From contig OY757026.1 in the NCBI GenBank assembly GCA_963580285.1, positions 50,443,143-50,507,142 of the forward strand: a DNA stretch of 64,000 nt. The letters are read 5' to 3'. The notes below the pieces were generated by a model. It was not told where the DNA came from, searched no databases, and was given only the letters and a program-made list of their open reading frames with translations. Positions 1,153-62,584 of the stretch are shown piece after piece. Every line of letters starts with the position of its first letter. Positions within the stretch are counted from its first letter, which is position 1. Source of the stretch: Lucinisca nassula (lineage: Eukaryota > Mollusca > Bivalvia > Lucinida > Lucinidae). Made by a program: the position numbers and the translations under genes.

Positions 1153-4100
1153 CCGGATGCTTTTAGCTTTATGAGTGTTACCATATATGGGTATGGCGGC
1201 CATTTTGGTCATGTGACCTGGACCTAAAACGGTTCCCCCAATAAATGCGCCTTATCGTAAGGAGCCAAAATATATCTTATACTTTAGTACTGTATTCAGA
1301 ATCGTTTGCAGGATAAAATGCATTCTCACTTTTCCAATACAAAAGCATATGTGTCAAAGTTTGACCTAGGCACAAAGAAGGTCAAGGTCAACCCAGGGTC
1401 ACCATTTTAGCAATTTATGATGGGCCTACGTCCCAGATGCTATTTAGCAAGTTTCGTGGAAATCTGCCCAGTGGTTCTGGAGAAGACTATTTTTGATGGG
1501 TTTTTACCATATATGGCTTGGTGGCCATTTTGGTCATGTGACCTGGACCCCATGAGCAAATTTTGGTTTCCCCCATCCCATAGAGGCTCCATATGAAATT
1601 TAACTTCAATCGGCCCAACTGTTTCAGAGGAGAAGCAGTTGGAAAATTTTCACATTTTTCGCCTCAGCGAGGCTATACTTAATGGAATGTAATATTTCGC
1701 AAGTTCATTGGTTAGATCTCATTGATATCTATCACAATGCCAAAAATTGTTTAAATATTACAAGCGGTTAAGTCACTATCACCAATTTTCACAAATGGGT
1801 TACGGACGGACAGGCAGACAGACCATATATGGCTTGGCGGCCAGTATGGTCATGTGACCTGGACCCCATGAGCAAATTTTGGTTTCCCCCATCCCATAGA
1901 GGCTCCATATGAAATTTGACTTTAATCGGCCCAACGGTTTCCGAGGAGAAGCAGTTCGAAAATTTTCACATTTTTCGCCTCGGCGCGGCTATACTAAATG
2001 AAATGTGATATTTCGCAAGTTCAGTGGTTAGATCTCATTGATATCTATCAGTATGCCAAAAATTGTTTAAATATTCCAAGCGGTTAAGTCACTATCACCA
2101 ATTTTCACAAACGGGTTACGGACGGACAGACAGACTGACAGAATGACAGACTGACAGAATGACACAGTGATTTTAGGGCACTCTCAGAAATCAACTGACT
2201 TCAGTCTGTCGCTTTTTCTGCGGGTCGTGCAATAACCTTAGTTTGAGATAAAAGGACTTGAAAACTAATGCACAAAAAGAAAAACTGAAACAAAAGTGGC
2301 CAAAATCTAGTTTCACTTAAGCAGTCGTTGCTGGATTGTGAAACAAATTTGTCAAAATTTTAGAATATGGCAAGTCCGTGAGGTGTCCAAATTCTTAGAT
2401 TTTTTTATGGTGCATTTAAGAACTGGGATGCAATGCTGTCTGTACTTCATAGGCTCATAGGATGTCACAGGATTATTTATTTAGCGATAAAAAAATAAAC
2501 CATGATTCTTACCAATGATTGGATAAAAACATCATTATGATGGCAACAACACTGTTTCCTTGTAAGAAAACTACATGCATTTTTTTTTCTGATGTTGTTT
2601 CAATTGCACGACCCGCAGAAAAAGCGACCGAATGAAGTCAGTTGATTTTCTAAGAGTGCCCTAAAATCACTGTGTCATTCTGTCAGTCTGTCTGTCCGTC
2701 CATAACCCATTTGTGAAAATTGGTGATAGTGACTTAACCGCTTGGAATATTGAAACAATTTTTGGCATACTGATAGATATCAATGAGATCTAACCAATGA
2801 ACTTGCGAAATATTACATTTTATTTAGTATAGCCTCGCTGAGGCGAAAAATGTGAAAATTTTCGAACTGCTTCTTTTCGGAAACCGTTGGGCCGATTGAA
2901 GTCAAATTTCATATGGAGCCTCTATGGGATGGGGGACCAAAATTTGCTCATGGGGTCCAGGTCACATGACCAAAATGGCTCCCAAGCCATATATGGTCTG
3001 TCTGTCTGTCTGTCCATCCGTAACCCGTTTGTGAAAATTGGTGATAGTGACTTAACTGCTTGGAATATTGAAACAATTTTTGGCATACTGATAGATAGCA
3101 ATGAGATCTAACCAATGAACTTGCGAAATATAACATTTCATTTAGTATAGCCTCGCTGAGGCGAAAAATGTGAACATTTTCGAACTGCTTCTTTTCAGAA
3201 ACCGTTCGGCCGATTGAAGTCAAATTTCATATGGAGCCTCTATGGGATGGGGGAAACCAAAATTTGCTCATGGGGTCCAGGTCACATGACCAAAGTGGCT
3301 GCCAAGCCATATATGGTCTGTCTGTCTGTCCGTCCGTAATCCGTTTGTGAAAATTGGTGATAGTGACTTAACCGCTTGGAATATTTAAACAATTTTTGGC
3401 ATACTGATATATAGCAATGAGATCTAACCAATGAACTTGCGAAATATAACATTTCATTTAGTATAGCCTCGCTGAGGCGAAAAATGTGAAAATTTTCGAA
3501 CTGCTTCTTTTTGGAAACCGTTTGGCCGATTGAAGTCAAATTTCATATGGAGCCTCTATGGGATGGGGGAAACCAAAATTTGCTCATGGGGTCCAGGTCA
3601 CATGACCAAAGTGGCTGCCAAGCCATATATGGTCTGTCTGTCTGTCCGTCCGTAACCCGTTTGTGAAAATTGGTGATAGTGACTTAACCGCTTGGAATAT
3701 TTAAACAATTTTTGGCATACTGCTAGATAGCACAGATCTAACCAATGAACTTGTGAAATATAACATTTCATTTAGTATAGCCTCGCTGAGGCGAAAAATG
3801 TGAAAATTTTCGAACTGCTTCTTTTCGGAAACCGTTTGGCCGATTGAAGTCAAATTTCATATGGAGCCTCTATGGGAAGGGGGAAACCAAAATTTGCTCA
3901 TGGGGTCCGAGTCACATGACCAAAGTGGCTGCCAAGCCATATATGGTCTGTCTGTCCGTCCGTAACCCGTTTGTGAAAATTGGTGATAGTGACTTAACCG
4001 CTTGGAATATTTAAACAATTTTTGGCATACTGATAGATAGCAATGAGATCTAACCAATGAACTTGCGAAATATAACATTTCATTTAGTATAGCCTCGCTG

Positions 4101-39664: not shown

Positions 39665-39787
39665 TTCATTGGGCGGCAGGGCTTGAGATGTCATTTTATC
39701 CAAATTAAAGGTAAAAGTCCCACAAAATCGGAAGCAACGTCTCCAAAATGATCTAAATAGTGCTGACGGTAATCAAAAGGGCGACTA
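39665..39787 (+). mobile_element. SINE-A, 5'-truncated
   Basis: GGGCGGCAGGGCTTGAGATG, then GTCTCCAAAATGATCTAAAT and AGTGCTGACGGTAATCAAAA. It retains only the 3' 120 bp and abuts the LINE directly. Confidence 0.75.
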
Positions 39788-40236
39788 TGAAACTATGAGG
39801 AAGGATGCCCTAAAATTTGCAAGAGAGAAATACTTTAATGGTCATTCAGACGCTCAGTCTGTCCAGGAGAACTTTGATTTGATAAAGTCTTTCATTCAAG
39901 CTTCGTCCGAAAATCATATCCCCTCCAAAACTAGCAGGTCTGTATCTTCAATTCCTTGGATCACACCAGAAATAAGAAGAAAAATTCGGAGGAGAAATAA
40001 GATTCATGCTAAGGCAAAAAGTCGGGAAGTGGTAAACTCAGAGCAAAATTTGAAAACTTGAGACGAGAAATTAAAAATGACATCAAAAATCAGCATGATC
40101 AGTATGTAAATAACTTGGTAGGTGATGTAAAGGCGAATCCCAGAGACTTCTACAGATATATCAATAGCCAGAAGAAAGATAGGCAAGGTATCCCACCCCT
40201 TAATATAAGAGGAGGGAACGGGGTCGCTGAATCGGA

Positions 40237-40680
40237 CATCTTCTTTCTTATGAATGTTTTCATTGCTCTTAAAGGAACTCATTTTTTGATTTTTATTTGC
40301 CTTCACTGCAGCTGGTGTTGTGCCGTGTGGCGGCCGTAAAACGTCTCCCCGTACATCAACCATAGTGCAGTTTATATTTTACTTTTGGTCCTTTGAGATC
40401 AGCGTGAATATTCTGAGAAATCAGAAATAAATTATGGTTTAGACTCATATTCTAGACAGGTTTTTAATTATTTGGACCCCATTTTGATTTATATCAGTCT
40501 TTGAATCGACTGCCTATTCGAAATTCGTAAAATTGCAGTATGTTTCCTCTGGCTTTCTTTGCCGGATCATTACAGGGTCACTGATGAGGCTTTATTAGCC
40601 GAAACTACGTAGTATGACTCATCTTCTTTCTTATGAATGTTTTCATTGCTCTTAAAGGAACTCATTTTTTTATTTTTATC
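40237..40680 (+). mobile_element. retrozyme-like element (383-nt unit plus 61-nt partial repeat)
   Basis: CATCTTCTTTCTTATGAATG begins at 40237 and again at 40620, an offset of 383. The repeated part is about 61 bp (to 40298 and 40680). The hammerhead motif sits immediately before the second repeat. The element interrupts the LINE frame between GVAESD and ERAEEL without shifting it, since the insertion length is a multiple of three. One unit plus a partial copy starting near the cleavage site is what is expected of animal retrozymes or Penelope-derived elements. No protein is encoded. Confidence 0.8.
40575..40620 (+). ncRNA. type I hammerhead self-cleaving ribozyme
   Basis: The core CTGATGA (40581-40587) and GAAA (40601-40604) flank stem II: GGCT/AGCC (40588-40591 with 40597-40600) and a 5-nt loop. 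Stem III is minimal: C605-G612 and T606-A611 around ACGT. The cleavage triplet is G-T-A, with the cut predicted after 40614. Stem I: GGGTCA (40575-40580) pairs with TGACTC (40615-40620), one pair being G-U. All invariant core residues are present, so this copy should be cleavage-competent. A very short stem III is typical of the hammerheads in Penelope-like and animal retrozyme elements. Confidence 0.88.
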
Positions 40681-43041
40681 TGAAAGGGCAGAGGAATTGG
40701 TTGGTCAATTCAATGATGCATTTAATAAAACTGAGTTCAACGAGGTTCCATTGACTGGAAGATCGGCCCCTTTCATGGAAAATATTGTTGTATCCTCTGC
40801 GGGAGTGATCAAGTTACTTAAAGGCTTGAACCCTTCTAAAGCTTTAGGGCCTGATGAGCTTCATCCTAGAGTCCTGAAGGAACTAGCAAACGAGTTAGGT
40901 CCAGTTTTTGCTCATCTTTTCCAACAATCTCTCGATACAGGTGAAATTCCCAAAGAATGGCTCCTAGCGAACATCTGTCCACTTTCAAAAAAGGGGACAG
41001 GGCTCTTGCTCGTAATTATCGCCCGGTGTCACTGACCTGTGTTCTATGTAAATTACTTGAACACATAGTCTGCTCAAACATCATGGCCCACTTGGATGAA
41101 CATAAACTTTTGTCAGACAGACAACATGCATTTAGGAAAAGGCATAGTTGCGAAACTAAGTTGAGCACGGTTATTAATGATTGGGCAAAAATCCTGGACA
41201 AATGTGGGCAGGTGGACACATTTATTCTGGACTTTGAGAAGGCTTTTGACACCCCTCCTCATGAACTACTTAAATCCAAATTATTTGGTTATGGAATTGG
41301 TGGGAAGACTCTTAAATGGATAGATTCCTTCCTTTGCTACAGAAAACAGCGTGTTGTTGTTAATGGTGAATCTTCAGTATGGGCGCCAGTTTTGTCTGGA
41401 GTCCCACAAGGGACTGTTCTTGGTACTCTATTGTTCTCCCTGTACATCAATGATATTTCCACTGACATTGACTCAGAAATAAGACTGTTCGCAGATGACT
41501 GTGTTTGTTACCGGGAAATTAGAGATACAGATGACTCACTGAAACTTCAGGCTGACATAGATAGATTAGGACGTTGGGCCAGAAAATGGGGCATGAGATT
41601 TCAACCAGTTAAATGCGATATTATGCAGATAACAAGGAAGAGATCTAATAAAGTTGAGGCTTCTTACACCTTAGAGGGAACGGTCCTCGAAAATGTGAAT
41701 TCCATTAAATACCTTGGTGTGACAATCACTCACGATTTGAGATGGAATACACACATTAGCAATATGTGTACAAAGGCGAATAGAACACTTGGTTTCCTGA
41801 GGCGAAATCTTCATCAGTGTCCTCAGGATGTGAAAGAGACAGCATACAGGGGACTTGTTCGCCCAATCTTGGAATATGGTAGTTGCATCTGGGACCCAAG
41901 CGGAGTGGTCCTTAATGAAGAAATTTAAAAAGTTCAGAATAGAGCTGCTAGATTTGTAACTGGAAATTATTGCTTTGAAACTGGGAGCATGACTGGAATT
42001 CTAGGAAAATTAAGATGGGAGTCTCTCAAGAAAAGGAGAAGAGACAGTAGGCTCATACTCTTATACAAAGGTCTAAAGGGTGCTGCCAGCATTCCAACAG
42101 ATGACCTTGTTCCCCCGGCTAGGCACTGTAGAAAACACCACTCAATGACGTTTCAGACCCTTACTACAAGAACGGATATTTATAAAGAATCTTTTTTCCC
42201 CCCGAACCATTAGAGATTGGAATGCCCTTTCCGATTCTATTATTTTGACGGCTGAAGGTGCTGAGGATTGTGTAGCTAAGTTTACATCTTTGGTTAGAGC
42301 TAGGGACTAACTTCCCATATCACAGGTCCTGGTGTATGAATGTCATTTGACGTGTCACCAGTAACAATTCTGATTCTGATTCTGACGGGGATGTCTAACC
42401 TAAAATCAAACAAACAACAAATGAACATCAAAAGTAAATAGCTCGCAGGATAGACTACTGAATACAGCTATAATACTATTGTATTTCATTTAGGCAGTGG
42501 CTAGGGATACGGGCCCGTATCTCTAGCCCACAGGGAATCAAGACAGTTCCCCGACAAGACAGTTCCCCGACACGGTTTTTGGAGACAGTTCCCCGACATA
42601 TTTGAAGACAGTTCCCCGACACTTTTGAAGACAGTTCCCCGACACTATTGTTCAAAGTCAAATGACCTGTGACTGATCATAATTGATTATCATAATTGAT
42701 AGTTCTTCTGTGTTCATCAATATTTTGAAGACAATTCACCGACAGACGTTTAGAAAATTAAATTATGGGTTCGTCGAAATTTTTGAAGACAGTTCCCCGA
42801 CAGTCTTTTACATGTAAAAAATAAAAGCTTATACTTGATGCCATTATCGATAAAGGCATCCTATTCACCTGAATTTGGTAGTATTGAACTAGACAAAGAA
42901 CCAATCCCACTAAATGGCATAACATGCGTTGTCGGCAGACTGACGGCGATACATTTTTAGGCTTTAAAGCTGACCGAGCATTAAAGACATCTACATTTAA
43001 ATTGAATCTTGACGAATGCTGACTGATGAACAAATTCCACA

Positions 43042-61855: not shown

Positions 61856-62330
61856 GAATTCCACAAAGCTTTGGCGGTATGTAAATAACCTTAATCCTAG
61901 GTTTCAAGTAAAGGCCAAATCATATGAATATTCGAGTAAACTAATTATGACGTAACTGCCAGGAATTCCTTGTCGGACTATAGATGGTTTTATTTGCCAT
62001 TGATTTGTTTGTACATTATATTTTGCATCCATCAATCGTTTTCATTTTTTTATGGACAACAACAAAAGTAGGTAGCAATTTTTTAGTTTGTAGGTGAAAA
62101 TAATTATTACTTGCTGGTAAATATTCAGTTACTCAGTAATTATCCAAATTCATAAAAAATAACAACTGATTTTCATCTAGCGAGGTTGTTCCCCCTTGTT
62201 TCAAATACAATTGTGACAGGTACTTAGTGAACTGATCTATTACATAGAAACCTCTTTACTTAACACCTTTCATTATAACATGGCTGGATATAACAAAAGT
62301 TACAGCTTGCCCAAATACAGTAAAATTATT
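61856..62330. other. A/T-rich DNA, nothing recognised
   Basis: No open frame, hairpin or known repeat. Confidence 0.4.
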
Positions 62331-62337
62331 ATATTAA

Positions 62338-62405
62338 GACCACCTTTGGGACAGTTCAAAAGTGGTCTTTAAGACCACTTTTGAACAGTCCCAAAAGTGG
62401 TCTCT
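62338..62405. repeat. near-perfect hairpin
   Basis: GGGACAGTTCAAAAGTGGTC, TTTAA turn, GACCACTTTTGAACAGTCCC. Outer CCACCTTT / AAAAGTGG pairs extend it imperfectly. Confidence 0.9.
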
Positions 62406-62584
62406 GATCAGCGGTCACTGTATGCAGAAAACAGAAAGAATAACTGCAGCCAACCAAATAAGCTTTTTAAAGCAGAATTAGTCTTCATTTCAGGTGGTCT
62501 CAATATTGGAATTGATTGATACCCCTATAAAACACACTCTCCAAATAGGGGTTTACAGGAGAACTCATTACATTGTTGTTGTTC

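What the first reader, a model, noticed from the sequence alone, without database searches (positions are those of the whole stretch)
40237..40680. Retrozyme-like element with an intact hammerhead ribozyme nested in a LINE
Seen: 40575-40620 has every invariant hammerhead residue (CTGATGA, GAAA, U-A at 15.1/16.1, cut after GTA), a 4-bp stem II, a minimal stem III and a 6-bp stem I. The ribozyme sits exactly at the end of a 383-nt unit, and a 61-nt partial copy of the unit's start follows its cleavage site. Known: hammerheads with tiny stem III and partial tandem organisation occur in Penelope-like elements and animal retrozymes, whose RNAs self-cleave and may circularise. Inferred: the left end begins at or within a few bases of the cleavage point, so the insertion probably derives from self-cleaved RNA. 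It entered the LINE reading frame without a frame change.
Basis: partly seen in the sequence, partly recalled or inferred. Interest (0 to 1): 0.87.

Follow-up and report, generated by a model that had tools for sequence, protein, structure and literature searches.

The report
Hammerhead-ribozyme retrozyme inside a LINE
This is a copy of a small protein-less jumping element that carries a self-cutting RNA and recurs across this genome; the way its copies begin and end suggests that they are reverse-transcribed from an RNA circle starting at one fixed point, which makes a long-open question about such elements testable.

Summary
Window 40237-40682 is 1.16 copies of a 384-nt non-coding unit with an intact minimal type I hammerhead, nested in a broken LINE. 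The same genome (2.93 Gb) holds further copies, mostly 96-98% identical, often tandem; 79 of 89 hammerheads examined keep core and stems. A diverged second family keeps the ribozyme with changes in its helices. It is best filed as a metazoan non-LTR retrozyme, a known kind. It misses Rfam's gathering scores. What is new is the anatomy of insertion. Right ends are fixed 64-71 nt after the ribozyme cut (33 of 38; 22 of 22 in a second sample); left ends spread over the unit; lengths fall off exponentially up to 5.9 units; 20 of 22 copies read through the cut; 58 insertions show no target-site duplication beyond chance. A conserved ~100-nt core follows the start point. This resembles the internal-initiation 'tail' of Penelope-like elements and fits target-primed copying of a circular (or uncut tandem) RNA. 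The autonomous partner was not identified.

The parts
40237..40682 (+). whole retrozyme insertion: one unit (40237-40619) plus the first 60-63 nt of a second; right end 40679-40682 (a few bases uncertain)
   Evidence: direct repeat; alignment to genome copies
40575..40620 (+). minimal type I hammerhead ribozyme; cut expected after 40614
   Evidence: sequence; pattern 1 against 0.01 expected; 79 of 89 genome copies intact; family B counterpart
40605..40612 (+). palindrome CTACGTAG of stem III, could also pair between two hammerheads (dimeric form)
   Evidence: sequence; replaced by another palindrome, CTAGCTAG, in family B
40615..40682 (+). 3' tail of the insertion, from the cut to the inferred reverse-transcription start
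   Evidence: right ends 64-71 nt after the cut in 33 of 38 and 22 of 22 insertions
40295..40300 (+). same start site (AUUU) inside the full unit, where synthesis passed through
   Evidence: phase 59-64 of the unit
40302..40401 (+). core shared by families A and B, directly 3' of the start site; inferred recognition element
   Evidence: 78% identity over 105 columns with family B; related core in family C
39687..40236 (+). left part of the host LINE, with frame changes
   Evidence: open frames; no Pfam match for its longest piece
40683..42213 (+). right part of the host LINE, reverse transcriptase domain at about 40990-41727
   Evidence: PF00078, E 3.7e-32; PDB matches include LINE-1 ORF2, E 6e-8

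Best explanation
The insert is a copy of an animal-type non-LTR retrozyme. Shown here: an intact hammerhead; further young copies; right ends fixed 64-71 nt after the cut; left ends spread over the unit; exponential lengths from 66 nt to 5.9 units; units of one insertion more alike than units of different insertions; no target-site duplication; short microhomology at junctions. Inferred: transcripts are cut by the hammerhead and closed into circles; a reverse transcriptase of Penelope type recognises the conserved core, is primed by an A/T-rich nick in the genome, starts at the AUUU site just 5' of the core, runs round the circle until it falls off, and the 5' end is joined by microhomology. 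Because the core lies 3' of the start, a daughter can keep it only if synthesis passes a full turn, so a circle (or an uncut tandem RNA) is needed to make a copy able to move again. In a minority, perhaps including the window copy, synthesis stopped close to the hammerhead-cut 5' end.
For: Fixed right ends: 33 of 38, 12 of the 15 insertions of at least 830 nt (which do not depend on the query's shape, P 3e-18), and 22 of 22 in a sample chosen without regard to length. 63 left ends, KS against uniform P 0.22; lengths exponential, P 0.90 and 0.88; 20 of 22 read through the cut. Within-insertion differences 1.9% against 2.9% between insertions (16 of 22 under two units), 1.5% against 2.9% (14 of 15 longer). 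TSDs: 50 of 58 none, seven of 4 bp, one of 5 bp; re-paired controls expect 51.1, 4.8, 1.5. Nine empty sites. Core 3' of the start in two families. The Anolis PLE starts inside its RNA 85-92 nt after its hammerhead cut and needs RNA 3' of the start (PMC11167929). Predicted circle is stably folded, z -3.0 against mononucleotide shuffles.
Against: No RNA evidence. No partner PLE found: the PLEs read (L052-L054) show no hammerhead and no shared sequence. PLEs often make TSDs (8-10 bp in some rotifer copies, PMC3846280), and animal retrozymes are said to have TSDs 'when present' (PMC7229834). L018 and L020 end elsewhere (287, 55 nt); L020 has mixed full and shortened units, which a single-unit circle does not give. 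Six of 22 shorter insertions are not more alike within than between. In vitro the Anolis hammerhead was not needed for insertion. Rfam scores are low.
Confidence: 0.62

Rival explanations
1. Same element and same internal start, but the template is an uncut linear tandem transcript of an existing genomic array, not a circle.
For: Arrays exist in the genome. In the Anolis PLE, unprocessed RNA is the main substrate in vitro (PMC11167929). L020 has mixed units. A multi-unit copy starting 2 nt after a cut (L016, 4.2 units) fits a linear multimer cut only at its 5' end.
Against: Within-insertion likeness also in insertions under two units (16 of 22, six with no difference), although homogeneous source arrays could give this too; mussel retrozyme RNA is mostly circular (PMC7229834); no left-end piling at unit boundaries beyond 6 of 63.
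Confidence: 0.25
2. The mobilising enzyme is a LINE-type reverse transcriptase that happens to start at the T-rich site.
For: Fixed 3' end, 5' truncation and microhomology are also LINE features (general knowledge); LINEs are present; a T/A-rich start and A at the first base of the right flank in 32 of 60.
Against: The start is internal to a repeating RNA, with a conserved core 3' of it; no poly(A) or 3'-terminal repeat; no TSD in 58. The Anolis paper states that start inside the RNA at a site not homologous to the target had not been seen in other retrotransposons.
Confidence: 0.12
3. A DNA satellite or chance motif spread by recombination, without retrotransposition.
For: Tandem arrays exist; Rfam scores are below threshold.
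Against: Dispersed insertions of 66-826 nt with a fixed right end and clean empty sites in repeats; ribozyme kept in 79 of 89 copies and in a diverged family.
Confidence: 0.02

Closest known systems
Metazoan non-LTR retrozymes, in particular the Mytilus galloprovincialis retrozyme of ~350-390 bp (Cervera and de la Pena 2020, PMC7229834)
   Same: Type I hammerhead with short stem III, tandem units of the same size, low G+C (37.3% here), no protein coding, 98%-identical dispersed copies.
   Different: No target-site duplications found; fixed right end, exponential lengths and a core 3' of the start are described here and I did not see them in the parts read. I did not compare sequences with Mytilus. 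Expression and circles unknown here.
Penelope-like elements (PLEs), e.g. Poseidon of Anolis carolinensis (PMC11167929) and rotifer Penelopes (PMC3846280)
   Same: Tandem or partial tandem copies, 5' truncation, a 'tail' ending at an internal reverse-transcription start downstream of a hammerhead cut (85-92 nt there, 64-71 here), RNA needed 3' of the start, TSD-less microhomology joining in one rotifer case.
   Different: No reverse transcriptase or GIY-YIG gene in the element, so it is not a PLE; 384-nt unit instead of kilobases.
Plant LTR retrozymes (type III hammerhead; PMC7761336 passages)
   Same: Non-autonomous hammerhead retroelements proposed to move through circRNA.
   Different: According to the papers read: type III hammerheads, LTRs, primer-binding site, 4-bp TSDs. 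The hammerhead here is type I and no 4-bp TSD excess was seen.
Family B and C repeats of the same genome (L003; L026/L027)
   Same: B: hammerhead and core; C: core directly 3' of a T/A-rich end.
   Different: B: different tail; C: no recognisable hammerhead.

Membership tests
Metazoan non-LTR retrozyme | Type I hammerhead with intact catalytic core | tested here: met
   79 of 89 copies
Metazoan non-LTR retrozyme | Tandem repeats of 150-450 bp, dimers to multimers, many copies | tested here: met
   384-nt unit, up to 5.9 units, 63 matches from 40 of 1875 candidates
Metazoan non-LTR retrozyme | G+C below 50%, no protein-coding region | tested here: met
   37.3%; longest ORF wholly inside the insert 36 aa
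Metazoan non-LTR retrozyme | Target-site duplication, when present, longer than 4 bp | tested here: not met
   none beyond chance in 58 insertions; the source paper does not make it obligatory
Metazoan non-LTR retrozyme | Self-cleavage and expression as linear and circular RNA | not testable with these tools
   no RNA data
Rfam hammerhead families | Score at or above gathering threshold | tested here: not met
   RF00008 20.3 of 48.5; RF03152 15.0 of 56.3; none
Penelope-like element | Reverse transcriptase with GIY-YIG endonuclease | tested here: not met
   no ORF over 36 aa wholly inside the insert
Moved by a PLE (works like) | Tail: right ends at an internal start downstream of the hammerhead cut | tested here: met
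   33 of 38 and 22 of 22 at 64-71 nt
Moved by a PLE (works like) | Autonomous element of this genome sharing tail or core with the retrozyme | tested here: inconclusive
   20 PLE loci from the top (138 matches from 150 of 746 candidates scored) plus L051-L054 compared; only retrozyme fragments beside L037 and L039/L051; other PLEs not read
Plant LTR retrozyme | Type III hammerhead and 4-bp TSD | tested here: not met
   type I topology; seven 4-bp matches of 58 against 4.8 expected

The most novel reading that the evidence does not exclude
Animal retrozymes are moved by a Penelope-type reverse transcriptase that starts at one fixed internal point on a hammerhead-made RNA circle and runs round it. 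The recognition core lies just 3' of that start, so only an endless template can pass it on: circularity is then not a by-product but the condition of heredity for these elements.
Probability: 0.5. Interest if true: 0.8.

Novelty: new member of a known kind. Interest (0 to 1): 0.6.

Why it matters
[quoted passage not shown] A young family with a fixed start point, length statistics of an endless template, TSD-less junctions with natural empty sites and a conserved core makes this testable in one animal.

Tried and rejected
Rfam on the window and on the element: nothing above threshold; likewise three tandem PLEs and L051, family C in L026 and families A/B in L003. A plain fold of 61 nt around the ribozyme does not give the hammerhead as minimum (z -0.6). 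Hammerhead scans of PLE loci found none: L031-L050, L051-L054. I first took the family B fragment beside the L039/L051 PLE for a tail starting exactly at a ribozyme cut, and dropped this when its upstream part looked like family C. That L037 is a composite PLE/retrozyme insertion was dropped: the PLE copy there has (AT)n on both sides and the order of events cannot be told.

A first set of end positions used a 385-nt ruler with one C too many; ends, TSDs, lengths and within/between differences were recomputed with 384 nt and those are reported. Not recomputed, so still on the 385-nt ruler: private variants (38 in all copies of an insertion, 154 in only some), junction microhomology and right-flank bases.

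Rows dropped: one search kept 36 of 42 alignments (fragments, edges); one search uses 38 insertions in the first sample, one left end unmapped (L058), L020 left out of the within/between test; in the second sample 22 right ends and 26 left ends. Selection: one search scored 40 of 1875 candidates and favours insertions of about 440 nt or more; one search scored 40 of 666 candidates, all perfect 60-mers on contigs C1-C4; I fetched 29 stretches holding 31 of these 40 matches, the other nine lie in insertions already held (L004, L023, L064-L067).

Papers: PMC7229834, parts 1-4 of 6; PMC11167929, parts 1-3 of 4; PMC7761336, PMC8969392 and PMC3846280, passages; others only search listings. PMC4209133, PMC8557442 and PMC5785218 are not held.

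Full report
What is there. Window 40237-40682 holds one full unit and the first 60-63 nt of a second in direct repeat, inside a LINE with stops and frame changes. At the end of the full unit lies a minimal type I hammerhead with all core residues, a 4-bp stem II, a stem III that is an 8-nt palindrome and a 6-bp stem I. One such pattern is in the window against 0.01 in shuffles. Rfam does not call it: best models 20.3 and 15.0 bits against thresholds of 48.5 and 56.3.

It is a family. A search of the window's own 2.93-Gb genome gave 63 matches from the 40 candidates scored, of 1875; most are 96-98% identical and many stand in arrays at 382-384 spacing. Of 89 hammerheads in the first 45 retrozyme loci, 79 keep the core, a full stem II and at least 5 bp of stem I. 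A second family (B, two ribozymes in L003) has T-A to C-G in stem II, another palindrome in stem III and T-A to T-G in stem I; one of the two has a mismatch in stem II. Its tail does not align with that of family A, but a ~100-nt core is 78% identical. A family C (L026/L027) has a related core and no recognisable hammerhead.

How insertions end. Ends were mapped for 38 independent insertions (loci) and for 29 further stretches from a 60-mer search, against a 384-nt unit. First sample: right ends 64-71 nt past the cut in 33 of 38, the others at 55, 74, 75, 83 and 287. The first query itself ended there, so I looked apart at the 15 insertions of at least 830 nt, which hold the query whatever their end: 12 of 15, P 3e-18. 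Second sample: 22 of 22 mapped right ends at 66-71 (the 60-mer sets the lower bound, not the upper); eight of 29 stretches run into a further unit at the edge and give no right end. The 63 mapped left ends do not depart from uniform (KS P 0.22). Lengths run from 66 nt to 5.9 units and fit an exponential in both samples (P 0.90, 0.88). In 20 of 22 the copy reads through the cut next to the start; two short copies that stop near the cut were found (L077, L098). A template ending at that cut would have given mostly such short copies.

The left-end excess. Six of 63 left ends lie 0-5 nt past the cut (L077 exactly at it), P 0.0005 for that window, which I chose after looking; the next densest 6-nt window, at 355-360, holds five, so the excess is weak. 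It may mark copies made up to a cut 5' end. The window copy (5 nt) is one of the six.

Likeness of units. Units of one insertion are more alike than units of different insertions in 16 of 22 insertions under two units (pooled 1.9% against 2.9%, sign P 0.026) and 14 of 15 longer ones (1.5% against 2.9%, P 0.0005); six of the shorter have no difference in the overlap. L020, with full and shortened units mixed, was left out and does not fit a single-unit circle.

Junctions. No target-site duplication beyond re-paired controls in 58 insertions. For nine insertions another copy of the target repeat shows an empty site: no duplication, 0-9 target bases between the flanks, part of which can be read as microhomology; right-side microhomology 4,0,2,1,3,3,2,0,1 and left-side 2,0,0,2,3,0,0,5,0 nt. 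The right flank begins with A in 32 of 60 (A is 37% of the flanks further out). The window's own empty site was not found.

Mechanism. The Anolis PLE protein starts reverse transcription inside its RNA, 111-118 nt into an ORF whose hammerhead cut is at +26, needs RNA up to +172, and this start explains the genomic 'tail' (PMC11167929). The retrozyme has the same order: ribozyme, tail of 64-71 nt, start, conserved core. A rotifer PLE inserted without TSD by microhomology, while others there made TSDs of 8-10 bp (PMC3846280). I infer PLE-type internal initiation. Because the core lies 3' of the start, only copying past a full turn of a circle, or along an uncut tandem RNA, hands the core on. Mussel retrozymes of this size are abundant circRNAs (PMC7229834), which makes the circle the likelier template; uncut tandem RNA is the main rival, and in vitro the Anolis hammerhead was not needed.

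Partner. GIY-YIG gave 138 matches from 150 of 746 candidates. Three tandem PLEs were read: ORFs of 764, 820 and 801 aa with an ORF upstream, period 3.8-4.0 kb; the first two have RVT_1 and GIY-YIG by Pfam. The L053-type family ends at two alternative sites about 40 nt apart, as PLE tails do. No hammerhead and no retrozyme sequence was found in these three. The partner is not identified.

Novelty. The element is a new member of the metazoan retrozymes. In the searches made (open-licence papers only) and the parts read I saw no report of a fixed internal start, TSD-less empty sites or a core 3' of the start for animal retrozymes. Subscription papers and supplements were not searched.

Noticed in passing
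L052, L053, L054 (own genome): Tandem Penelope-like elements with an upstream ORF (389-492 aa, no Pfam match for the two scanned) and an RT/GIY-YIG ORF of 764-820 aa; periods 3808, 4027 and 3992.
   Followed up: partly
L031, L032, L034, L035, L037, L039: Copies of the L053-type PLE end at two alternative sites about 40 nt apart; the long form is followed by (AT)n in three of three.
   Followed up: partly
L037 (about 2658-2698 and 3199-3217): A ~61-nt tail of retrozyme A, split by a ~500-bp insert, lies beside (AT)n and a 5'-truncated PLE copy.
   Followed up: partly
L026 and L027, 182-469: Retrozyme-like family C: repeat of roughly 240 nt with the shared core but no CTGATGA; a 7-bp hairpin lies in place of the hammerhead.
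   Followed up: partly
L003, 1984-3252: Inverted arrangement of family B units and a chimera of A and B joined inside the hammerhead.
   Followed up: no
L016 and L069; also L088: Insertions with similar right flanks (..GGGAAAACCTTTAAAAATCTTCT), i.e. in one repeat at about the same place: possible target preference.
   Followed up: no
window 62313-62503: A hairpin repeat that serves as the empty site for the insertion in L061.
   Followed up: partly
left ends 354-360 nt after the cut: Seven of 63 left ends fall within the hammerhead's stem-loop II region, a possible pausing site for the reverse transcriptase.
   Followed up: no
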